44,818 nt of DNA from a virus. The translations under genes were made by a program, and so were the position numbers. Positions 1 to 44,818 of the stretch are shown here, piece after piece. The DNA lies in IMG/VR virus record IMGVR_UViG_3300017971_000407, positions 1-44,818 of that record; one strand, written 5' to 3'. The notes under the pieces were generated by a model. The model was not told where the DNA came from and searched no databases. It was given only the letters and a program-made list of their open reading frames with translations. How positions within the stretch are numbered: the first letter of the stretch is position 1; each line of letters opens with the position of its first letter.

Positions 1-27
1 ACGCATCCGCCTGGTCGTCATTGAGGC
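1..27. repeat. Terminal overlap with 44792-44818 (25 of 27 bases identical)
   Basis: Bases 1-27 equal the last 27 bases of the window except at two positions. The match starts at the very first base and ends at the very last base, which is what an overlap of a circular or circularly permuted molecule looks like. Twenty-seven is a multiple of three, so the beta-helix gene stays in frame whether or not the overlap is collapsed. The two mismatches could be strain variation or read error, or a genuine repeat of the NDxQxDA beta-helix motif. Confidence 0.75.
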
Positions 28-8300: not shown

Positions 8301-9419
8301 TCACGCCACACAGGCCACAGCATCGACTCCGTGGTGGAGTCCCTGCTTGCGGCGCTGTTTGACTGTTTGCTGCCCCCGGAACAGGCTCTTGGCCCAGATA
8401 GAATCCTGCTCGTAGGGCTCGATGAAGTCGGTGCTCTTGAAGAACAGGTTCCGCGAGATCACAAGCTCGATCCAGCGGGTGTTCAGGAAGAACGCACCGG
8501 CCTGCGTAGCAGTTTGTGCGAGGGCCACCGTATCGGCTGCGGTGTCGCCGAAGTCGGGCATGTAGTCCGACCAGAACATCATCGCACCCTTGAACTTCAT
8601 CGCCTCGAACCCGGCGCTGGTGATACCGTCGTCTCCGTAGTTGCCGTACCGCTGGTTCGCAGTGAGCCCAGCCTCGTAGCACTCGAAGTAGTTCTGGTCT
8701 GCCAGAATCAGGTCGGGGTGATCTTGGTTGGAGCCACGGGAGCATTCGTTGTAGAGATGGGCCATCTCTCGCCGGAATGCCAATGCCGTGTTCGTACCGA
8801 CGGCCGAAAGCTGGATGCGGTTGCGCCACCAGTCCTCGGCACCTTCGTCGATGTTGTGAACCGAGTCTCCGGTGGTCCACTCCTTCTTGATTAGCCAGCC
8901 GAGCGGGAGTAGATCCTTCCCGCTGTTGCCTGCCACAAAGTTGAATGGAAGACCAGCCGGGGCCGGGTCCACGATTCCCTGGACGAGCTGCTGCTCGACC
9001 ATTTGCTTCAAGGTCATCTCTGCGATGTCTACCTTGTCGCGCAAGAGTTCCCGCTTTGCAGCGAGACCCTGGTTCTGATCCATCTCTTCGCCCGAGATTC
9101 CCACCGTGCAGGCAAGCTGCGCCAAGTCCTCGATCGTGACCGTGATCGAATCCGTGGGGTTGACGCTGAGAATCTCGAACTTCGAGTAGGAACCGGCGTT
9201 CGCGTTCTCTGCCCAAATCACGGGCACCTTCACCCGAGCGCCGCCGTTCTGGAATCGAATCCCGCGCCCCGCTCCACGGTCTCGACCACGACCCCTGTTC
9301 ATCATGTACCAGAGGTACGGGATGCCCAGGAATACGTTATCCGCCAAGTCCGGCGAATGGTCATCGAGAGTCGTGGAGAACAGCGCGGAATAGATCCGCA
9401 GTTCCGAAGTCGAAGCCAT
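8301..9419 (-). CDS. Major capsid protein
   Basis: 372 residues, ATG 9419 with GAGGTGAGG just upstream. The order scaffold then this gene then decoration, the length, and the content (N-terminal LYxALFSTTLDDHSPDLADNVFLGIPYLWYM, then a GGARVKVPV ... SYSKFEILSVNPTDSITVTIEDLAQLACTVGISGEEMDQN core, long helix KRELLRDKVDIAEMTLKQMVEQQLV, and C-terminal WSDYMPDFGDTA ... TRWIELVISRNLFF) fit an HK97-fold capsid subunit. The segment GISGEEMDQNQGLAAKRELL matches the E-loop to spine-helix transition seen in related podovirus capsids. No protease domain is seen. Confidence 0.85.
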   Translation of the reverse strand: MASTSELRIYSALFSTTLDDHSPDLADNVFLGIPYLWYMMNRGRGRDRGAGRGIRFQNGGARVKVPVIWAENANAGSYSKFEILSVNPTDSITVTIEDLAQLACTVGISGEEMDQNQGLAAKRELLRDKVDIAEMTLKQMVEQQLVQGIVDPAPAGLPFNFVAGNSGKDLLPLGWLIKKEWTTGDSVHNIDEGAEDWWRNRIQLSAVGTNTALAFRREMAHLYNECSRGSNQDHPDLILADQNYFECYEAGLTANQRYGNYGDDGITSAGFEAMKFKGAMMFWSDYMPDFGDTAADTVALAQTATQAGAFFLNTRWIELVISRNLFFKSTDFIEPYEQDSIWAKSLFRGQQTVKQRRKQGLHHGVDAVACVA

Positions 9420-10453: not shown

Positions 10454-10837
10454 TCACCTCCCGCTACCCATGTGGAAGGTCTTACGCCTTGCCTCACGTG
10501 CTTTGATCCGAGAGTTCTCGGTCGGTCCCCTATCGTGTAGGTTCTGCTCACGCATGAGCTGTCGCCTATGTCTTTGTGACCGGACTTCCACCGGCTCGTG
10601 GCCGAGGTTCTCGTCTATGTAGGGGAAGATCCCCTTCTCACGACTCCACTCGGCAATACCTTGCTCGCTATAGATCCGCCCTGCGCGCTTGCCGCATGCA
10701 GTGCACGTCGGGTACTGCTCTTCGCCGTGCATTTCCGATGCCGGCATCCGCAGCGTGCACTCCCAGGTGACGACCTTATCGGGCGTCTCGCGCCGATCCG
10801 GACATTCCGGGTTGTTGCATCGGAAGTCGTAGATCAT
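10454..10837 (-). CDS. FmdB-like zinc-ribbon phage protein
   Basis: 127 residues. It opens MIYDFRCNNPECPDR and has a second knuckle YPTCTACGKRAGRIYSEQG near residue 45, which is the arrangement of FmdB-type zinc-ribbon proteins (hydrophobic YxFxC start, CxxC, then a ribbon closing CxxCG). The remaining part is basic and helical (EVRSQRHRRQLMREQNLH). ATG overlaps the portal stop as ATGA. Such proteins are frequent beside portal and capsid genes in phages, role unknown; nucleic acid or protein binding is plausible. Confidence 0.65.
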   Translation of the reverse strand: MIYDFRCNNPECPDRRETPDKVVTWECTLRMPASEMHGEEQYPTCTACGKRAGRIYSEQGIAEWSREKGIFPYIDENLGHEPVEVRSQRHRRQLMREQNLHDRGPTENSRIKAREARRKTFHMGSGR

Positions 10838-12846
10838 CCATTGCCCTCCGACGTGCGCGCAGTCCGGCCGTTGCTACGGCCCTCGGCGAATCGGTTGCCT
10901 TCCGGACCCTGCCCGGTCTGCTTCGGCCCGCCCTGCGAGCCCGGTCCCGGCCCTTCCTGCTGGCCGACCAGCATGGCCGCAACCTGCTGGAACTCGACCA
11001 CCATCTGTGGGTCGTTGAACCTGTGGGCGGTGAAGAACCGCTTGCTGAACGTCGGAGCCAGGAACGCCGCAGGCCCGAGGAGGGAGACGATGTTCCCAAG
11101 CTCCTGACGTTCGGCGGCGAGGTCATGCGGTTCCAGTTCGGTCAGGTCGATGCGTGTCTTGAAATCGCCCTGGATCTGAAGGCGCGAGAGCCGCCCCTCG
11201 AACGCCGTTCCGCGAGGTCCAGTGATGTTCACCTGCATGCGCTCGTCCATGTTGTACTGCATGGAGTCGAGCGTGATCTTGGCGTGCCGTTCCAGGCATC
11301 GGGCGACCGTGGCCCGTTTATCATTGTCCCTGGCAGTACCACTGCGTTCGATGATGGCGGCTTGCGTTGCCGTGTCGCTGTCGGCAATGCCCCGCGCCTC
11401 CGGGGAGTTCCCCAGGATCTCGCTCATGTCGTCGATGAACCGAGCCATCATGCGATAGATTGCCGGGTCCAATGGCGCGTCTTCGAGTGCTCCAATGTCT
11501 GTTCTGTTGCCCTTGCGGAATTCGACTACAACGCCATCGTCGGGATCGGCGAGCTTCGCCTTCTCGCTCTCATCGAGCATCCCGAACCGGGAGATGTATT
11601 TGCGCTTGAAGCGCCGGAAGTGGGTGAGCAACCCACTCCACATCTCGTTGTAGCCGAGCGCCAGCGGGCGGGCCGCCTCGATCTCGGTAATCGGCCAATA
11701 CTCTCCGGGCACCTCATGGATCTTGCAGTCGCTATACGGCGAGGTCTCGATGTACGGTGGAAACGGCATCTTGCCTACAAGTTTGTCGAATCCATCGACG
11801 ATGTACCGGATCTCGCGCTTCTTCAAATCCCAGATTTGGGTGCCCCAGATCCGCGAGAGGTGTCGATCGTTGGGTGTGAGTGTGAGCGGCTCCGCCGGAT
11901 TGAAGGCCGCATTACTGCCTTCCAGCCGTGCCCGCGTGTTGCGCGAGAGGCCGTCCCGGTCTACGAAGCGCAGAGCGTTGGTGATCTCCTTCTTGTGCTC
12001 GAAGAACTCCACCGCCTCGAACTCTTCGAGGGTCCAGCTCATACGCTCGCCGATCTTCTGGTGCTCCTGAAGGTCGTTCGCGCCCTCCGGATCGATCCGC
12101 ATGTCCAAAAAGTGCACCCAGTCGGTTCGGAAGTAGTCGGCCGGATTGCGGTTGTCTACGACGAACTTGGTGCGTCCGCGTCGGATGGGTGTACCGTCTG
12201 CGCGGAGCTTCGGAGTCCCGCCGACGAACTCGATGCGCTCTTCGCCCGTGAGCGGGTCCACCTCGTAGGCAACCTCGCCGAGCTGCTCGGGCTTGTCCTT
12301 CTCGGGGTCGATGCCCAGGTCCGGCACGTAGGTATGCTTCAGGAACCCGACTCCGAAGTGCGCCATCAACAACGTCAGGCGCGCATGCAGGAGGAAGTTG
12401 TTCTTTGGTGCCTGGAGCACGTAGTTGAGTGCGTGTTCTGCCGCCTCGCGCTGTTCATCGTCTCCGAGCCCAGACGCTCGACGGGCGTGCAGGTTGAACC
12501 ACGGGATCTGCCACATGATCTGCGCGTTCTGGCTCGCCAGGACCGCCAGGATGCGGTTGACGACGATGCGCTTTTCGGTGGGATCACCGTAGTCCCAGTC
12601 GTCGATCTCCCAGTCCCAGGTGAAACCGGGGTTCTGCTTGCCGACATAGAAGTCGATGTTCCGCTGGAAGGTCTTAAAGTAGTTCTCGGACTGCGCCTCT
12701 GCCATCCGCACGAAGGTCTCGTCGAGTCGCACGTCGTTCTGCCGACGCCGCCCTTTCCGCGTGTCCTTCAGACGTGCATTTGCAAGGCCGGCCCTACCCG
12801 ACCCTGGTGGTATGCTTGCCCTTGTCTTCTTCTTTCGCGCCGCCAT
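10834..12846 (-). CDS. Portal protein
   Basis: 670 residues, ATG 12846. Basic N-terminus, then a helical region DETFVRMAEAQSENYFKTFQRNIDFYVGKQNPGFTWDW and the clip/wing-like part KRIVVNRILAVLASQNAQIMWQIPWFNLHAR. Middle has a typical podovirus portal phrase VPGEYWPITEIEAARPLALGYNEMWSGLLTHFRRFKRKY, followed by the stem-like RKGNRTDIGALEDAPLDPAIYRMMARFIDDMSEILGNSPEARG and the SGTARDNDKRATVARCLERHAKITLDSM helices. The C-terminal tail is Q/G-rich. Located downstream of the terminase nuclease gene and upstream of scaffold, as expected. It forms the dodecameric DNA entry ring. Confidence 0.85.
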   Translation of the reverse strand: MAARKKKTRASIPPGSGRAGLANARLKDTRKGRRRQNDVRLDETFVRMAEAQSENYFKTFQRNIDFYVGKQNPGFTWDWEIDDWDYGDPTEKRIVVNRILAVLASQNAQIMWQIPWFNLHARRASGLGDDEQREAAEHALNYVLQAPKNNFLLHARLTLLMAHFGVGFLKHTYVPDLGIDPEKDKPEQLGEVAYEVDPLTGEERIEFVGGTPKLRADGTPIRRGRTKFVVDNRNPADYFRTDWVHFLDMRIDPEGANDLQEHQKIGERMSWTLEEFEAVEFFEHKKEITNALRFVDRDGLSRNTRARLEGSNAAFNPAEPLTLTPNDRHLSRIWGTQIWDLKKREIRYIVDGFDKLVGKMPFPPYIETSPYSDCKIHEVPGEYWPITEIEAARPLALGYNEMWSGLLTHFRRFKRKYISRFGMLDESEKAKLADPDDGVVVEFRKGNRTDIGALEDAPLDPAIYRMMARFIDDMSEILGNSPEARGIADSDTATQAAIIERSGTARDNDKRATVARCLERHAKITLDSMQYNMDERMQVNITGPRGTAFEGRLSRLQIQGDFKTRIDLTELEPHDLAAERQELGNIVSLLGPAAFLAPTFSKRFFTAHRFNDPQMVVEFQQVAAMLVGQQEGPGPGSQGGPKQTGQGPEGNRFAEGRSNGRTARTSEGNG

Positions 12847-13087: not shown

Positions 13088-13278
13088 TTCTGCTCCCGCA
13101 CGATCCGTGGTCGAATGGGCTTCTCGCAATGAGCGCACATCAACTGCACGGGGATCAGGTCTGCGCGAACGTGTTTCTCGAACAGGCAGCGTCCGCACTT
13201 GTAGATCGCAGTCGGCTTGAATCGGCCCTGCTCTTCCGACAGCAGCTTCTCAACCTTCTTGGTCGTCTTGCTTCTCAT
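13084..13278 (-). CDS. Small zinc-ribbon protein downstream of terminase nuclease
   Basis: 64 residues. ATG 13278 overlaps the terminase nuclease stop as ATGA. A CGRC and CAHC pair separated by about twenty residues (YKCGRCLFEKHV ... LMCAHCEKPIRP) make a zinc ribbon, flanked by a basic N-terminus (RSKTTKKVEKLLSEEQGRFKP). No other domain. Translationally coupled to terminase and to the next Zn protein. Nucleic acid binding is plausible, not shown. Confidence 0.65.
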   Translation of the reverse strand: MRSKTTKKVEKLLSEEQGRFKPTAIYKCGRCLFEKHVRADLIPVQLMCAHCEKPIRPRIVREQK

Positions 13279-14180
13279 GCCAGTACGTACTTCCCTCGTT
13301 GCTGCTTCTTCTCGATCTGCTCGGCCCACCAGCCCCAGGTTCCTGGCATCGAGACGATTGCGTCAGGCGTCTCGAACCCCCGAGACAGGAGGATGTACTT
13401 GTTCGCATCGAAGGCATCGATCCCCTTCTGCACGATGGCTTCGGGGTCGTCCATGTTGGCGATGGCGTGCGCGGTCGTATGCTGCTTCTTCCGCAGATTC
13501 CGGTAGCACTTGAGCGTCTCGACGCAGTGGTCGAAGATTTGGAACTTTGGCGAGTCCTTCTTTTGCCAGAGGTATCCGTCGAGCAGAGCAACATAGGCCA
13601 TGTCTACGCCCGGCTCGTTGCGCCCCTTCTCGATGTAGATGCCCTCGTCCTCGAACATCTCGCCAATGGATTTGAGTCGCTCTTCGTCCTGTCCCTGAGT
13701 GCGCCGCCAGATCGATGGATCTCCAACAATGCCCCGTATCCGTTCCCAGTAGGGCTTGGCTTTGATGGCCTTCGCCTGCTGGGGGACCGTGAGGCCCGTC
13801 ATTACGATTTCGTCGATCTGGACGCATTCGTCGATGGACTTGAATGCGATGGGAGTGAAGGCCATTGGGTTCGCAGTGCCGTAGTCGTAGCCCGCGTAGA
13901 GCGGCCACTCCTCGGGCACGTTGAACTTGGGCACGGCGACATGCGCCTGACGTTCGAGCCAATCGGGGTACACCTTGCGACCGCCGAAGATTTGGAAATT
14001 GATTTCCATTTCCTGCTGCCACTTGGAGCCCGCTTGCCCGCCTGGATAGCCCTTGACCTGCGACTGGAACCATCGCATTCCCTTCTCGGTGTCTGGGTCT
14101 TTGACCTCATCCGCCGAGTAGTGCAACCGCATGACGCGCACGCCATCGCGGGTGGTGTAGTATTCGATGCCTTTCGACAC
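13275..14180 (-). CDS. terL: Terminase large subunit, C-terminal nuclease half (separate gene)
   Basis: 301 residues from the GTG at 14180. It begins with the linker that normally follows the ATPase (YYTTRDGVRVMRLHYSADE ... GYPGGQAGSKWQQEMEINFQIFGG) and then has the RNase H-like nuclease: YAGYDYGTANPMAF with the first acidic residue, IVGDPSIWRRT with the second, and a distal ANMDD/AFDANKY region for the third. No Walker motif is present; the ATPase half is the separate gene at 16548-17336. The start is uncertain because GGAG sits only two bases from GTG; an ATG (MRLHYSADE) lies 15 codons in. Likely works with the ATPase half as a two-piece packaging motor. Confidence 0.8.
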   Translation of the reverse strand: MSKGIEYYTTRDGVRVMRLHYSADEVKDPDTEKGMRWFQSQVKGYPGGQAGSKWQQEMEINFQIFGGRKVYPDWLERQAHVAVPKFNVPEEWPLYAGYDYGTANPMAFTPIAFKSIDECVQIDEIVMTGLTVPQQAKAIKAKPYWERIRGIVGDPSIWRRTQGQDEERLKSIGEMFEDEGIYIEKGRNEPGVDMAYVALLDGYLWQKKDSPKFQIFDHCVETLKCYRNLRKKQHTTAHAIANMDDPEAIVQKGIDAFDANKYILLSRGFETPDAIVSMPGTWGWWAEQIEKKQQRGKYVLA

Positions 14181-14185
14181 TTCTC

Positions 14186-14710
14186 CTACTTCTTCTTTGC
14201 GCCGCCGGGCTTCGCCTCGGGGGACGCTGTTTCGGGGAAGTCCACGTCCCCAGCTTCTTCGATGGCGATGAGGAACTGCTCCACCGAGGAGATGTTCTGC
14301 GCGCATCGGTTGGCGTCGAACACGGTCATCCCTCCCCCAAGACCTGCCGAATTCGACTTCAGCAGCTCGTAGGAGAGCATTTGCCACATCTGAGCCACTG
14401 CCACGGCGTCCGTGTTCAGCGGCTTGCCGTCCACGCTGATGAGTTCCGGGGGAACCTGCGTGGTCATAAACGTCATCGGATGGACGGCAGGGAGATCCGG
14501 CATCGGCCTGCCTGCAAGGCCAGCCAGCCGGTCTCGTGCGTTCTGGATGTAGGCGCGTTGACGCCCCATCGCGTGTTGGTCGAGGCCCATCGTTGTGCCT
14601 GCCGACTGTTCACGGGCGGTTGTGACACACACCTCGTAGCTGAAGTCGGCGAGGCTGCCGAGTTCGGTGTTCTTGTACTCGAAGTCACCGAACAGATCCT
14701 CGAACGCCAT
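14186..14710 (-). CDS. Unknown protein between terminase halves
   Basis: 174 residues, ATG 14710 after GGTGG. Starts MAFEDLFGDFEYKNTELGSLADFSYEV, has a helical middle (MGRQRAYIQNARDRLAGLAG) and ends with a helix (NRCAQNISSVEQFLIAIEEAG) and Lys-rich tail. The mix resembles small virion or packaging accessory proteins but no family is recognised. Its stop (TAG) is five bases from the terminase nuclease start, so the two are probably coupled. A small-terminase-like DNA-binding role is possible but no helix-turn-helix is apparent. Confidence 0.6.
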   Translation of the reverse strand: MAFEDLFGDFEYKNTELGSLADFSYEVCVTTAREQSAGTTMGLDQHAMGRQRAYIQNARDRLAGLAGRPMPDLPAVHPMTFMTTQVPPELISVDGKPLNTDAVAVAQMWQMLSYELLKSNSAGLGGGMTVFDANRCAQNISSVEQFLIAIEEAGDVDFPETASPEAKPGGAKKK

Positions 14711-14736
14711 TGGTTACCACCTCTCGTTGCAAGTTG

Positions 14737-15072
14737 CTAACGAGTGACGGATCCGCTCGTCACGTACTTCCACGGCAGCCGCCGTAGAGCTTTCTGCACC
14801 TGATGCAGAAATACGTTGATGGCCGTATTCACGAGGGCCACCTTGAAGGGCTCGAACACCGACAACAATCCGGCGACGGCGTAGCCAATCGGTTTGATGG
14901 CAGCGTCGGAGCTGCCCGGTAGGTATCCCGCGCCATCCAAGAGCGCGCCGATGTACTGCCAAACGAGGATGACGAATGGGATCGCCTGGTTGTTGATCCA
15001 CTTCACTCGCTTGGCGATGATGCCGATGAGGGCACCAATCGTGATGAGAATTGCCATTGTTTCGGGGGTCAC
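14737..15072 (-). CDS. Small membrane protein, possible holin or virion membrane protein
   Basis: 111 residues from GTG 15072, with GGAGG six bases upstream. A hydrophobic N-terminal segment (ETMAILITIGALIGIIAKRV, residues 4-23), a second (AIPFVILVWQYIGALLDGAGYL, about 29-51) and a third weaker one (PIGYAVAGLLSVFEPFKVAL). The C-terminus is basic. This layout fits a phage holin, though a structural membrane-interacting role cannot be excluded because it lies in the packaging cluster, away from the endolysin. It follows the two tandem paralogues with 10 bases between. Confidence 0.55.
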   Translation of the reverse strand: MTPETMAILITIGALIGIIAKRVKWINNQAIPFVILVWQYIGALLDGAGYLPGSSDAAIKPIGYAVAGLLSVFEPFKVALVNTAINVFLHQVQKALRRLPWKYVTSGSVTR

Positions 15073-15082
15073 GTTGATCCTC

Positions 15083-15823
15083 CTATTCCTGATACAGTCC
15101 GATGCCCCACACTTTGCCGAGGATCCGAAGCGGCGTTGTGATCGCTCCCGCCCACTGGGGATCCCACATAAGGCTGACCATTATTTCGTCGTATGCCATG
15201 ACGCTCGGCAGCCCTTCCCAGGCCCCGAACATCGTGTTCCCCGAGACGCTCGGGTAACCGAGCCAAATCATCGAAGAGATAACATCGAGCGGGTTGACGT
15301 TCGCCACCGCACCCGAGCGCCAGCCCCAACTTGCCCACTGGTCACGTCCGTTCCGGGGAGCGCCAGCCAGGTTGCCGTCTGCGTCTGCTCGTATTCCCGC
15401 GAGAGAGACCTCGGCTGGCGTTTGCCAACAAATCTGGTGTTGGGCGTAGAGGGCATTCAAATGCTGGGCGGCGGGTGCGGCGTTCCAGGGGCTATTCAGC
15501 AGCGCGTTACCTTCGTGCATGCTTCCCACTGGGACCGGAACCGCCACGGTCGTTACCGGCGGAGTTGCAGTCCAATTCACTGCAACAGTGCCCTGCACGG
15601 GGCGCGTTACCGAATAGAGCCCGAACTTCTCGTAATTCTGCACGTTGATGCGGTCGAGGTATGTGGGGTTGTAGTAGTTGGCCGCACTCGTTGTATCCAC
15701 CACGTCGTTTGGTGGATCATCCACGTCGAGCGGGATGTTGTGCAGATTCCCGCTCGTGCCGAGCGTAATGTCGTTGGTCCCATCGCTGGACCACAGCAGG
15801 AATTGCTCTTTTCGCCAGCCCAT
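15083..15823 (-). CDS. Tandem paralogue B in the terminase locus
   Basis: 246 residues; the ATG at 15823 overlaps the stop of paralogue A as TGATG. It shares with A the opening MGWRK-QFLLWSSDGTNDITLGT, then NYYNP--LDRI-V--YEKF-LYSVTRPVQGT, VPVPVGS-HEGNALLNSPW, and near the C-terminus GAWEGLPSVMAYDE-MVSLMW-PQW-G-I-TPLRILG. No cysteine motif, no membrane segment, no recognisable catalytic motif. Beta-rich, like a virion structural protein. In-frame sequence upstream of 15823 belongs to paralogue A's region and is not part of this gene. Function unknown. Confidence 0.7.
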   Translation of the reverse strand: MGWRKEQFLLWSSDGTNDITLGTSGNLHNIPLDVDDPPNDVVDTTSAANYYNPTYLDRINVQNYEKFGLYSVTRPVQGTVAVNWTATPPVTTVAVPVPVGSMHEGNALLNSPWNAAPAAQHLNALYAQHQICWQTPAEVSLAGIRADADGNLAGAPRNGRDQWASWGWRSGAVANVNPLDVISSMIWLGYPSVSGNTMFGAWEGLPSVMAYDEIMVSLMWDPQWAGAITTPLRILGKVWGIGLYQE

Positions 15824-16548
15824 CACTGACCTCGCTCTTGGTAGTACCCGATGCCGTAGACCCTGCCGAGAATGCGAAGCGGCGTTGAGATGACTCCTCC
15901 CCACTGCGGCACCCACATGAGGCTCACCATGAGTTCGTCGTATGCCATGACGCTCGGCAGCCCTTCCCATGCTCCAGTCCACGGGCTTCCGGCTGCCGCC
16001 ATAGACGGATAGCCGAGGAAGATCATCGAAGAGGCAATATCGAGCGGATTGACGGACAGTCCCGCCTGACGCCAACCCCAGTACGTCCATTGCCCAGTAA
16101 CGCTTCCGTCTGCATTGCCCCGCGTGCCAGTCAGTGATGCTGTGGGGGCGTGGAATGTGATGCGGTGCTCGTTGTAAACGGCTGATGCGTGCTGGGCTGC
16201 GGGCGCGATGTCCCAGGGGCTATTCAGCAGCGCGTTGCCCTCGTGGGCGCTGCCGACCGGCACCGGGACCGAAACGACTGTCGCGGCCGGGTTGGCGGAG
16301 AACCCAACAGAGTCAGTGCCCTGCACGGGGCGCGTTACCGAGTAGAGCGCGAATTTCTCGTAGTGCGTCACGTCGATCCGGTCGAGTGACGCGGGGTTGT
16401 AGTAGTTCAGGCTCCCGATGTCCGCCACGTCGTTTGGGGGATTGTCTTTGTCGAGCGGGACGTTGTGGCACTGGTTCGTAGTGCCGAGTGTGATGTCGTT
16501 GGTGCCGTCACTCGACCAGAGCAAGAACTGGTCTTTTCTCCAGCCCAT
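15823..16548 (-). CDS. Tandem paralogue A in the terminase locus
   Basis: 241 residues; the ATG at 16548 overlaps the terminase ATPase stop as TGATG, so it is translated in tight coupling with it. Clearly homologous to paralogue B along its whole length, with the most different part in the middle (residues 125-165). The same phrases are conserved in both, including YSVTRPVQGT, VPVPVGS-HEGNALLNSPW and EGLPSVMAYDE. A recent tandem duplication is the simplest explanation. I do not recognise the family; a capsid or tail surface protein is the most likely role. Confidence 0.7.
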   Translation of the reverse strand: MGWRKDQFLLWSSDGTNDITLGTTNQCHNVPLDKDNPPNDVADIGSLNYYNPASLDRIDVTHYEKFALYSVTRPVQGTDSVGFSANPAATVVSVPVPVGSAHEGNALLNSPWDIAPAAQHASAVYNEHRITFHAPTASLTGTRGNADGSVTGQWTYWGWRQAGLSVNPLDIASSMIFLGYPSMAAAGSPWTGAWEGLPSVMAYDELMVSLMWVPQWGGVISTPLRILGRVYGIGYYQERGQ

Positions 16549-17336
16549 CAGGCCGCCTCCTTATCGTCCTCTTCCACGAGGGTTGCGTAGTAGCTACCGG
16601 CTGCGGCGGTCGTGATGAGAATGATGCGGCCACCGGAGTCGGGGTCATCCGGGTAGCCCTTCGCCATCGGAAGAGCTGCTTTGTATGCGTCCTCGAACTC
16701 GGGTTGGAAGGCAGCCTCGTCGCAGATCACCAGCGAGGCGGTGTAGGAACGGAACATATCGGCACCCTGCGGGATCCCAGCGATCACCGATCCGTTGGGA
16801 TACCACAGCTCACCTCGGGTCGGGGTCAGCTCGGTAGCGCGCATGAACAGCGGCATCGCCCTCTCGATGAACGCGCAACGGGCATGCAGCCACGAGTTGC
16901 GGTACACGAGGTTCCATGCGTCTTCTGCCTTCTTGGATTGGATCATCACCCGCGATTGCGGGTGGAAGCGGGCTTCCCAGGTTGCATACGCGCAGCAGAG
17001 CCAGGTCAACATCAACTGCCGCGACTTGGAAATCGCGGCTACGTCTCCTGATTCTTTGCCGTGGATGTGTTGGAGTGCTGCTCGGAGGTACTTCTTGTCG
17101 GTAGGGAAGGGTTTTCGGGGGAACTTGCGGGATCGCTCATCGAATGTCCGAACGAAACCGCCGAAGATGTAGTATTCGGGATCCTTCGTGCACTTCTCGA
17201 TGACCTTCTGGACCTTCGAGGTCGCACAACGGCGATTCATCCCGAGTTGCCGGAGCAGCTCGCGATCGAACGCTTCGAGATCCTTGAGCTGGGCTTGCGA
17301 CCGCAGGACGCGCTCGCTCGTCAACCGCTCGGGCAT
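16548..17336 (-). CDS. terL: Terminase large subunit, N-terminal ATPase half (separate gene)
   Basis: 262 residues from ATG 17336. It has the terminase ATPase signature: an SKSRQLMLTW Walker A-like motif at about residue 102 (the KSRQ form usual in large terminases), Walker B with catalytic glutamate SLVICDEAAF at about 207-216, and the coupling motif IILITTAAAG near the C-terminus. The gene then stops, with no nuclease domain. The nuclease half is 2.4 kb further down the operon at 13275-14180. No frameshift is seen: the end overlaps the next gene by TGATG, so the split looks evolved rather than a sequencing fault. A start at 17354 (GTG) is possible. Confidence 0.8.
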   Translation of the reverse strand: MPERLTSERVLRSQAQLKDLEAFDRELLRQLGMNRRCATSKVQKVIEKCTKDPEYYIFGGFVRTFDERSRKFPRKPFPTDKKYLRAALQHIHGKESGDVAAISKSRQLMLTWLCCAYATWEARFHPQSRVMIQSKKAEDAWNLVYRNSWLHARCAFIERAMPLFMRATELTPTRGELWYPNGSVIAGIPQGADMFRSYTASLVICDEAAFQPEFEDAYKAALPMAKGYPDDPDSGGRIILITTAAAGSYYATLVEEDDKEAA

Positions 17337-17514: not shown

Positions 17515-18015
17515 TTACTTCAACCCCCAACGTGCTCGATAACCACGGTTGTCGTAGTGGATGTGGCTGCGGTAGTACCCGAGACCGCCCTCACCCATGC
17601 GCGTGGGTCTGCCGATGCCGTAGCGCATCGTGGGCTCGCTCATCAGCTCGTCGGCAACCTTGTAAACCCGCTTCATGGATACACCTGGCACCTTGAAGTC
17701 CACCGCCATGATGCGCTTCGAGATCCATTTGGTGAGATGTCTGGAGTTTCGTGCTGAATCGGGGATGTAGCGGACGAGCCAGGTGGGCCGGAGACAGTCG
17801 GTGATGATGATAGGCTTGCGGAGCTTCTCGCGGAGCACCTCCAGACTATTCGCCAGTGCCGTCGCCGCGTCTACATCCTGACACACAACCGGGAACCGAT
17901 CGTGCTTACAGACCCGCTTGGGCCAATACACCCGAAAGTCGCTCAACCAGAAGTGATCCGAGACTTTCACGTCTGGGACATCCTGGCCGTCGATCCTCAC
18001 TACCCGTGTCTCCAT
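17515..18015 (-). CDS. Endolysin, peptidase M15 (D,D-carboxypeptidase-like, M15A_3 type)
   Basis: 166 residues from ATG 18015, with GGGAGGGG upstream. It carries the M15 zinc-ligand pattern: SRH at 91-93, AVDF at 104-107 and GGLGYYRSHIHYDNRGYRARW at 143-163, giving likely ligands His93, Asp106 and His153. The substrate would be peptide cross-bridges of peptidoglycan, releasing progeny. The His93 to Asp106 spacing (13) is longer than the usual S-x-H-x-x-G-x-A-x-D, so there is a short insertion. No signal peptide, so a holin is needed for export: candidates are 14737-15072 and 33229-33453. Confidence 0.8.
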   Translation of the reverse strand: METRVVRIDGQDVPDVKVSDHFWLSDFRVYWPKRVCKHDRFPVVCQDVDAATALANSLEVLREKLRKPIIITDCLRPTWLVRYIPDSARNSRHLTKWISKRIMAVDFKVPGVSMKRVYKVADELMSEPTMRYGIGRPTRMGEGGLGYYRSHIHYDNRGYRARWGLK

Positions 18016-18133
18016 CGCCACAACCCCTCCCGAGTGTGTCATTCTGTGCACGCCGAGGGGGATGCGCCCTCGTACCGCAGGCTCTCACGGCGGATCTGTG
18101 CGTGGAGCCGTTGGCCGGTCGGGCGCACCCGCC

Positions 18134-44406: not shown

Positions 44407-44818
44407 CAGGGAGCTGCACCTCCATCGATGTTAGCGGCCGTCAGGCTCGTGGGCACTGGCCCACCAGCGTCGTAGATCGGGTACAGGAAACTGGCCCCGG
44501 TCAGGGCTGCTGTGACGTATCCACGGATGTAGTTGTGGTGGACGTAGGTGTTCGCAAACGATGTCGAGGCACCGTTCTGTTCGATCCCGTAGGCGGGCAG
44601 AAGACCCACCGTGTCCGACCGGATGTTGTTGTTGATGATGAGGAAGTCCTGCGTCCCATCCGTGTTGGCTCCCGAGAGCGCCTCGACCGTGATCCCGGAA
44701 TGTCCGTTCGTCAGCGCCCGGCTGGGGTTATGGATCAAGTTCTCGGACACCAGCCCGCGCTTCAGTAGCGCAGCATTCGTCGCCAGGAGCAACGCATCCT
44801 CCTGGGCGTCATTGAGGC
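44406..44818 (-). CDS. Tail spike beta-helix protein, C-terminal part (joins 1-1213)
   Basis: 137 codons and the end of the gene begun at 1213. It opens at the right edge with LNDAQEDALLLATNAALLKRGLVSENL and continues with beta-helix rungs (NNNIRSDTVGLLPAYGIEQNG, YVHHNYIRGYVTAALTG, YPIYDAGGPVPTS) to the stop at 44406. Joined to 1-1213 across the ends the protein has about 530-540 residues. Its start is missing from this end, as expected for a gene that crosses the origin of the numbering. Confidence 0.7.
   Translation of the reverse strand, partial: LNDAQEDALLLATNAALLKRGLVSENLIHNPSRALTNGHSGITVEALSGANTDGTQDFLIINNNIRSDTVGLLPAYGIEQNGASTSFANTYVHHNYIRGYVTAALTGASFLYPIYDAGGPVPTSLTAANIDGGAAP
44792..44818. 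repeat. Right-end copy of the terminal overlap
   Basis: Matches bases 1-27 at 25 of 27 positions and reaches exactly to the last base. It encodes LNDAQEDA on the minus strand where the left copy encodes LNDDQADA. See the entry at 1-27. Confidence 0.75.

What the first reader, a model, noticed from the sequence alone, without database searches (positions are those of the whole stretch)
13275..17336. Terminase large subunit split into two genes 2.4 kb apart
Seen: the 16548-17336 product has the KSRQ Walker A-like, DE Walker B and TTAAAG coupling motifs but ends there; the 13275-14180 product carries the linker and RNase H-like nuclease (DYGTAN, GDPSIW) with no ATPase. Four genes lie between. 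The ATPase gene ends in a clean TGATG overlap, so it is not an obvious frameshift. Established: large terminases are normally one polypeptide. Inference: a two-piece motor, or an ancestral insertion that became fixed.
Basis: partly seen in the sequence, partly recalled or inferred. Interest (0 to 1): 0.8.

Follow-up and report, generated by a model that had tools for sequence, protein, structure and literature searches.

The report
Phage packaging motor split in two
In this uncultured phage and dozens of its relatives, the single protein that normally pumps DNA into the virus shell is encoded as two separate proteins by two separated genes, cut at a precise point between the motor's ATP-burning core and the part that passes on the force, which gives a natural test of how that motor works.

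Summary
The ATPase piece (window 17336-16548, minus) and nuclease piece (14180-13275, minus) are separate genes, 2,367 bases and four genes apart, on an essentially complete circular map with no other terminase found. A second contig is 99.98-100% identical.

It is not a one-off. Two ATPase-profile scans of IMG/VR gave 68 contigs: one encodes a single-chain terminase; 58 encode both pieces as separate genes; nine show only a short ATPase gene (eight cut at contig edges, one unexplained). In 30 of the 58 the nuclease gene lies upstream, so cis-splicing cannot join the pieces there. The break is constant: ATPase chains stop 13-25 residues after the coupling motif; nuclease chains carry 86-106 residues before the first catalytic Asp. 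It falls inside the ATPase domain, between T4 gp17's "engine" subdomain and its "transmission" (lid), not at the hinge.

Most likely: one ancient split, later spread and shuffled, giving a two-chain motor held together non-covalently. Assembly is inferred, not shown.

Two-gene large terminases are in print for Arthrobacter cluster AY phages, but those are adjacent, without detectable sequence similarity, and cut at the domain border. Hence a new variant of a known kind.

The parts
16548..17336 (-). Large-terminase piece 1 (P0001, 262 aa): ATPase 'engine' subdomain; ends 18 residues after the coupling motif
   Evidence: phrog_2, E 2.1e-11; T4 gp17, E 1.2e-10; model matches gp17 residues 62-312, Z 19.6
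17016..17027 (-). Walker A-like KSRQ (residues 104-107)
   Evidence: K, S and R identical in all 35 rows aligned (P0001 and 34 representatives)
16716..16721 (-). Walker B / catalytic pair DE (residues 206-207)
   Evidence: E in 35 of 35, D in 34 of 35 rows
16596..16613 (-). Coupling motif TTAAAG (residues 242-247)
   Evidence: alignments A6 and A10; column A244 is A in 34 of 35 rows
15823..16548 (-). First gene between the pieces (P0003, 241 aa), function unknown; overlaps the ATPase stop as TGATG
   Evidence: no Pfam or PHROG match; related gene in L007
15083..15823 (-). Second gene between (P0004, 246 aa), tandem copy of P0003 (65% identity)
14737..15072 (-). Third gene between (P0005, 111 aa), holin-like
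   Evidence: weak holin matches: Pfam E 0.012, below its cut-off, phrog_1129 E 0.0025
14186..14710 (-). Fourth gene between (P0006, 174 aa), unknown; a 78% identical copy lies between the pieces in L007
13275..14180 (-). Large-terminase piece 2 (P0002, 301 aa): end of the ATPase domain (lid) + linker + RNase H-like nuclease
   Evidence: phrog_2, E 1.3e-7; solved large-terminase nucleases, E 2e-5 to 3e-5
13884..13886 (-). First nuclease Asp (D99, GYDYG)
   Evidence: D in 32 of 32 relatives aligned
13719..13721 (-). Nuclease Asp D154 (GDPSIW)
   Evidence: D in 32 of 32
13407..13409 (-). Nuclease Asp D258 (FDANKY)
   Evidence: D in 25 of 32, N in 7 of 32 (one clade)
10834..12846 (-). Portal protein (context; used to find relatives)
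   Evidence: phrog_156, E 2e-7; P22_portal E 5.4e-6, just under its cut-off
8301..9419 (-). Major capsid protein (context)
   Evidence: tblastn to annotated major capsid proteins, best E 2e-20
17515..18051 (-). M15-type peptidase, probable endolysin, directly upstream of the ATPase piece (context)
   Evidence: Peptidase_M15_3, E 5.6e-6, above its cut-off

Best explanation
The phage makes its large terminase as two polypeptides that must come together to form one motor subunit. Chain 1 is the ATP-hydrolysing core (the 'engine' subdomain of T4 gp17, up to about gp17 residue 312). Chain 2 is the lid ('transmission'), the linker and the nuclease in one piece. The cut lies just after the coupling motif, so the elements that pass force from lid to nuclease stay covalently joined, and only the interface between core and lid has to be rebuilt non-covalently. 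The split most likely happened once, long ago, in a lineage now seen only in uncultured phages. After that the two genes could be separated by other genes (one to four in the window's own clade), change order, and occasionally be exchanged; one member (L071) is a single chain, by re-fusion or because it kept the ancestral form. Shown: two genes, constant break point, conserved catalytic residues, purifying selection, phylogenetic depth. Inferred: that both are translated and assemble, that the complex packages DNA, and the direction of change.
For: (1) 68 distinct IMG/VR contigs with a related ATPase from two profile scans (65; 3 more among the 64): 67 have a short ATPase ORF, 1 is a single chain; 58 have a separate nuclease ORF on the same contig, 28 downstream and 30 upstream. 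The scan patterns lie in the ATPase part, so they do not select for the split itself. (2) Constant break: 13-25 residues after the coupling motif (35 rows) and 86-106 residues before the first nuclease Asp (33 rows). (3) Structure: the model of chain 1 (mean pLDDT 72) matches T4 gp17 with Foldseek E 1e-11 and VIA-align Z 19.6 over 219 residues, gp17 62-312. Each chain matches the consecutive part of phrog_2, and the single-chain relative L071 spans 262-596 of the same profile. (4) Both pieces are under purifying selection: dN/dS 0.03-0.13 (ATPase, 7 pairs) and 0.03-0.18 (nuclease, 6 of 7 pairs; in one dS is saturated). (5) ATPase tree: the split rows plus L071 form one group (98/96) apart from ten other single-chain rows; the inverted-order rows form one clade (100/100) in both trees. 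(6) No Rfam match, hence no known intron family, in the window or in nine relatives.
Against: No protein or RNA evidence of any kind. For T4 gp17 a review states that translocation needs both domains in the full-length protein and that, without the hinge, separate ATPase and nuclease domains keep their own activities but lose translocation (PMC9958956, passages). That separation was at the hinge, not here, yet it shows that separation can kill the motor. The chain 2 model was poor (pLDDT 46), so its lid is inferred from sequence order and residue spacing. L075 has a short ATPase gene and no detectable nuclease on its 8.5 kb contig. One clade has N in place of D258 (7 of 32). Placing L071 outside all split rows is rejected by the nuclease tree (p 0.018) but not by the ATPase tree (p 0.064), so the number of splits and fusions is open.
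Confidence: 0.82

Rival explanations
1. The two pieces are exons of one gene: an intron (group I or II), possibly carrying other genes, is spliced out, or the pieces are trans-spliced, and a single terminase is made.
For: Group I introns in phage large-terminase genes are real (PMC11878797, passages), one Campylobacter phage terminase has an intein and an intron (PMC3322345, passages), and herpesviruses splice their large terminase from two exons with two to five genes in between (PMC6466031, passages).
Against: In 30 contigs the nuclease gene is upstream of the ATPase gene, so cis-splicing cannot give the right order. In 13 of the 25 first-scan contigs with the nuclease downstream the genes abut or overlap by a few bases, leaving no room for an intron. 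No Rfam family matches in the window or nine relatives. Of 13 proteins from between the pieces that were scanned, none is a homing endonuclease; one (L076) is a metallophosphatase-type exonuclease.
Confidence: 0.04
2. Protein trans-splicing by a split intein joins the two chains after translation.
For: Inteins in phage large terminases are known (PMC7156551, abstract and passages; PMC3322345).
Against: There is no room: split ATPase chains end 13-25 residues after the coupling motif and the nuclease homology begins at or near the start of chain 2; no intein family matched either chain.
Confidence: 0.01
3. The two genes have parted functionally: chain 1 is a packaging ATPase that works without a covalently linked nuclease, and chain 2 is a free nuclease that makes the initial and final cuts only.
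For: In T4 the two domains keep ATPase and nuclease activity when separated (PMC9958956, passages). The two pieces show conflicting tree positions for L074 and L076, as loosely tied genes might.
Against: The break is not at the domain border. Chain 1 lacks the lid that large terminases use to couple hydrolysis to movement (PMC5727402 and PMC9958956, passages), and chain 2 keeps about 95 residues before its nuclease domain, with E57 and E59 identical in all 32 relatives. That is hard to explain unless chain 2 completes chain 1.
Confidence: 0.1
4. Assembly or sequencing artefact, or a decaying terminase.
For: These are metagenome contigs, and one bacterial MAG copy (L077) has a frameshifted nuclease.
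Against: Independent near-identical contig; 67 of 68 contigs agree; dN/dS well below 1 for both pieces; active-site residues kept.
Confidence: 0.01
5. Several independent splits at the same weak point rather than one origin.
For: L071 is single-chain and sits among split rows in both trees; two-gene large terminases did arise independently in Arthrobacter cluster AY phages.
Against: The break point is the same to within about 12 residues in all rows. Outside placement of L071, which would allow one split and no re-fusion, is not rejected by the ATPase tree (p 0.064). The fewest changes between fused and split on the ATPase tree is 2.
Confidence: 0.25

Closest known systems
T4 gp17-type large terminase (single chain)
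   Same: Chain 1 is homologous (sequence E 1.2e-10; fold Z 19.6); both chains match phrog_2 in order; Walker A-like, Walker B and coupling motifs and RNase H-type acidic residues present.
   Different: Two polypeptides instead of one; the break is at about gp17 residue 312, between the engine and transmission subdomains; gp17's ~100-residue N-terminal extension is largely absent.
Two-gene large terminase of Arthrobacter cluster AY phages (BillyTP, Tiff81)
   Same: ATPase and nuclease parts encoded by two genes (PMC11920828 and PMC12820723, passages; records fetched).
   Different: Consecutive, overlapping genes; HK97-type family (phrog_9) with no detectable similarity to the profiles made here; cut at the domain border, so the nuclease chain has only about 14 residues before its first Asp-containing motif.
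Intron- or intein-interrupted phage large terminases (Bastillevirinae, Campylobacter phage IBB_35, cyanophage Mic1)
   Same: Interrupted large-terminase genes in phages.
   Different: Those are rejoined by RNA or protein splicing; here no intron family, intein or homing endonuclease was found, and gene order is reversed in one clade.
Herpesvirus large terminase gene (UL15 and homologues)
   Same: Large terminase coded in two parts with unrelated genes lying between them (PMC6466031, passages).
   Different: Herpesviruses splice the two exons into one protein. The position of their exon border relative to this break was not tested.
Podovirus ct52p938 (MW202803.1, Manatee Spring), the only annotated record matched by the window's portal, capsid and ATPase profile alike
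   Same: Portal, major capsid and ATPase related.
   Different: Its large terminase is a single 1,683-base gene.

Membership tests
Phage large terminase (TerL), T4 gp17-like | ASCE-type ATPase core with Walker A/B and coupling motif | tested here: met
Phage large terminase (TerL), T4 gp17-like | RNase H-like nuclease with conserved acidic residues | tested here: met
   P0002 matches phrog_2 and solved terminase nucleases; D99 and D154 in 32 of 32 relatives, D258 in 25 of 32
Phage large terminase (TerL), T4 gp17-like | ATPase and nuclease in one polypeptide | tested here: not met
   two genes; the family claim is therefore 'homologue of TerL in two chains', not 'a standard TerL'
Phage large terminase (TerL), T4 gp17-like | Gene neighbourhood with portal and capsid genes | tested here: met
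   portal and capsid genes directly downstream
Phage large terminase (TerL), T4 gp17-like | ATP-driven packaging and DNA cutting | not testable with these tools
   needs biochemistry
Cluster AY-type two-gene large terminase | Sequence relationship to BillyTP gp2/gp3 | tested here: not met
   no match of profiles A6, A7, ATPall or NUCall to either protein of BillyTP or Tiff81 (best E 0.058, one-residue alignments); different PHROG families
Cluster AY-type two-gene large terminase | Adjacent genes | tested here: not met
   window gap 2,367 bases with four genes; adjacency does occur in other clades of this lineage
Intron- or intein-split TerL | Recognisable intron, intein or homing endonuclease between the parts | tested here: not met
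Intron- or intein-split TerL | Joined mature message or protein | not testable with these tools
   needs RNA or protein data; excluded for cis-splicing in the inverted-order clade by gene order

The most novel reading that the evidence does not exclude
A whole lineage of tailed phages runs a DNA-packaging motor whose engine (ATPase core) and whose transmission-plus-nuclease are separate, non-covalently assembled and historically exchangeable parts: the two genes are scattered, inverted in order in one clade, and in at least one case (L074/L076) inherited from different sources. If so, covalent linkage between engine and transmission is dispensable in the terminase motor, and large-terminase domain shuffling has a natural route through two-gene intermediates.
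Probability: 0.55. Interest if true: 0.82.

Novelty: new variant of a known kind. Interest (0 to 1): 0.7.

Why it matters
The large terminase is used throughout tailed phages and herpesviruses as a one-chain motor, and work on T4 is read as showing that its two domains must be linked for DNA translocation. A natural lineage with the chain cut at one fixed point, between the engine and transmission subdomains and not at the hinge, says which covalent link can be given up. It makes the mechanical question directly testable: cut T4 gp17 at residue ~312 and ask whether two chains still package DNA, when a separation at the hinge does not. It also matters for viral discovery: pipelines that look for one ~60 kDa terminase will miss these phages or see only a short ATPase and a nuclease; PHROGs already holds several short 'terminase large subunit' families that may include such halves.

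Tried and rejected
Intron, intein, frameshift, second terminase and assembly error were each examined and rejected or made unlikely. Isolates: tblastn with P0001, P0002, three other split ATPases and the single-chain L071 against 50,697 phage records gave no match above about 32% identity in the rows listed (only the best rows are listed, e.g. 40 of 79 and 30 of 363). Four matched records that were opened have single-gene terminases; a fifth is barely annotated and was not judged. The idea that the conserved ~200-residue protein between the pieces in the inverted-order clade is a second RNase H-like nuclease came from its look; profile comparison did not support it (hhalign probability 0.4%; no convincing relative with a solved structure). 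The structure of chain 2 was predicted with too few relatives and came out poor (pLDDT 46), so no fold search was made with it. A joint prediction of the two chains was not possible with the tool. Co-variation between the chains was not tried: too few independent pairs. An attempt to read Hilbert et al. 2017 failed (not held).

Rows dropped before counts: L015, L016 and L018 are other cuts of the contigs of L004, L009 and L010. L077 (bacterial MAG, frameshifted nuclease) was left out of the nuclease tree and of the nuclease column counts but kept in the ATPase tree and in the ATPase column counts. L078 was left out of the nuclease tree. L008 (nuclease and portal only, ATPase off the contig) is not among the 68. 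Trees used one representative per 95% ATPase cluster (44 of 75 rows; 34 of those 44 from IMG/VR). The groups tested were named after the trees had been seen, and long branches are present.

Literature: 'split terminase' gives 0 papers; combinations with 'terminase large subunit' and split, two genes or separate genes gave 0; others. The two-gene terminase of cluster AY was found only through, so further mentions under other wordings, and in papers not held, are likely. All papers were seen as passages or abstracts, none in full. The residue limits of the gp17 subdomains (I: about 59-313; II: 1-58 and 314-360) are recalled; the subdomain names and roles are from PMC9958956 passages.


Full report
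OBSERVATION. On the minus strand, 17336-16548 encodes a 262-aa protein and 14180-13275 a 301-aa protein. Between them lie four genes on the same strand: two tandem paralogues (65% identical), a holin-like gene (weak matches) and a gene of unknown function. Both end proteins match the large-terminase family phrog_2, in consecutive parts of the same profile (250-404 and 445-597). The window is a virus record. A second IMG/VR contig is 99.98-100% identical over the region and runs straight through the window's two ends with a 27-base overlap, so the window is an essentially complete circular map. Profiles built from all collected pieces find no other terminase in it at E<=1.

NOT A ONE-OFF. The first relatives found (L004, L007, L009, L010) all have the same split, with one to three genes between the parts in place of four. 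A profile of the five ATPase pieces found 65 IMG/VR loci; a broader profile of 13 found 64, of which three contigs were new. Of these 68 contigs, one (L071) encodes a single 556-aa chain. In 28 a separate nuclease gene lies downstream (25, 3) and in 30 upstream (29, plus L055, whose nuclease tail was found). In nine no nuclease was found: eight belong to the inverted-order clade, or are near-copies of its members, and are cut by the contig edge within 1.22 kb upstream of the ATPase gene, where the nuclease would lie 1.3-2.1 kb away; L075 is unexplained. The 65 contigs of the first scan fall into 34 ATPase clusters at 95% identity, 33 of them not single-chain. More distant relatives in bacterial genome contigs (10 loci, 25-30% identity) are single-chain in nine; the tenth, L077, has an ATPase that stops at the same place and a frameshifted nuclease region.

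WHERE THE CHAIN IS CUT. In all 35 rows of split ATPases the chain ends 13-25 residues after the coupling motif; in the 33 rows of nucleases 86-106 residues precede the first catalytic Asp. The model of chain 1 (pLDDT 72) matches T4 gp17 best (Foldseek E 1e-11; Z 19.6, gp17 62-312). In gp17 the first nuclease Asp is residue 401 (PMC9958956, passages), about 89 residues further on, which agrees with the spacing in chain 2. Against the D6E terminase, chain 1 ends near residue 189-195, before the lid residues Y213 and R224 and the linker 230-241 named in that structure paper (PMC5727402, passages), and the nuclease match begins at residue 260. So the cut lies at the end of the ATPase core (gp17 subdomain I, the 'engine'), and chain 2 carries the lid (subdomain II, the 'transmission'), the hinge and the nuclease. 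Subdomain residue limits are recalled; names and roles are from the T4 review. That chain 2's first ~95 residues fold as a lid is inferred: its own model was poor.

FUNCTIONAL CONSTRAINT. K104, S105 and R106 are identical in 35 of 35 rows, D206 in 34 and E207 in 35; D99 and D154 in 32 of 32, D258 in 25 of 32 with N in one clade. dN/dS is 0.03-0.13 for the ATPase in seven pairs and 0.03-0.18 for the nuclease in six pairs; in the seventh dS was saturated.

HISTORY. On the ATPase tree (45 rows) the split rows and L071 form one group (98/96) apart from ten other single-chain rows. Two changes between fused and split suffice. The inverted-order clade is one group (100/100) in both trees. L071 lies among split rows in both; forcing it outside is rejected by the nuclease tree (p 0.018) and not by the ATPase tree (p 0.064). 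Either one split and one re-fusion, or more than one split, remains possible. The deep lineages L070, L072, L073 and L074 have adjacent or overlapping genes, so I infer that the split began as adjacent genes, and that insertion and relocation came later. The rows L074 and L076 group with different clades in the two trees, and both alternatives are rejected (p 0.004 and 1.3e-5; groups named after seeing the trees): the two pieces have probably been exchanged between lineages.

MECHANISM. Chain 1 and chain 2 would form one motor subunit by rebuilding the core-lid interface. The T4 review says that separated ATPase and nuclease domains lose translocation in the absence of the hinge. The natural break avoids exactly that point: lid, hinge and nuclease remain one chain. 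This is inference. Introns and inteins are disfavoured by the reversed gene order, the abutting genes, and the lack of any recognisable intron, intein or homing endonuclease.

KNOWN WORK. Two separate and consecutive genes for the large terminase are described for most Arthrobacter cluster AY phages (PMC11920828 and PMC12820723, passages). I fetched two: they are of the HK97-type family phrog_9 (BillyTP), without detectable similarity to these profiles, cut at the domain border and overlapping. Herpesviruses code their large terminase in two exons with two to five genes in the intron (PMC6466031, passages) but splice it. [quoted passage not shown] No paper found describes the present lineage or a non-adjacent or inverted split; papers not held were not seen.

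VERDICT. Real, conserved and reasonably surprising; a new variant of a known kind. Direct proof of a two-chain motor needs the bench.

Noticed in passing
window 15083-16548: Tandem duplicate genes (65% identical) of unknown function directly after the ATPase piece. L007 has a related gene (27% identity) in the same place, and L009, L014 and L017 each have a 240-340-aa gene there with a similar start by eye.
   Followed up: partly
window 14737-15072; L004 8780-9049; L010 7498-7869; L017 3096-3497; L133 5485-5904: A short, often membrane-like gene lies between the two terminase pieces in several genomes (holin-like by weak family match in the window, by similarity to the L004 gene in L010, by look in the others), and an M15-type peptidase lies next to the packaging genes in the window and in L059: lysis and packaging genes are interleaved.
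   Followed up: partly
L059 7744-8385, L022 7903-8472 and relatives: A conserved ~200-aa protein with many invariant residues always seen between nuclease and ATPase genes in the 10 inverted-order members aligned; no family match apart from one weak hit to a PHROG of unknown function (E 0.002).
   Followed up: partly
L074, L076: ATPase and nuclease pieces fall in different clades, which suggests that the two halves were exchanged between lineages.
   Followed up: partly
L087 (Microbacterium phage Shocker gp17), L091 (HTVC103P): Single-chain terminases whose nuclease part resembles this lineage (E 2.7e-24 and 8e-14) while the ATPase part does not match: domain shuffling among large terminases.
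   Followed up: no
window 1-27 and 44792-44818: The window's ends are near-copies of 27 bases (2 differences), and another contig runs through the join: circular or circularly permuted genome of about 44.8 kb, though the ends are not an exact repeat.
   Followed up: yes
L076 5119-5940; L132 6877-8553: Other genes found between the two terminase pieces: a metallophosphatase-type exonuclease (L076) and a 558-aa BNR-repeat protein (L132).
   Followed up: no
L075: Short ATPase gene without any recognisable nuclease on an 8.5 kb contig.
   Followed up: partly
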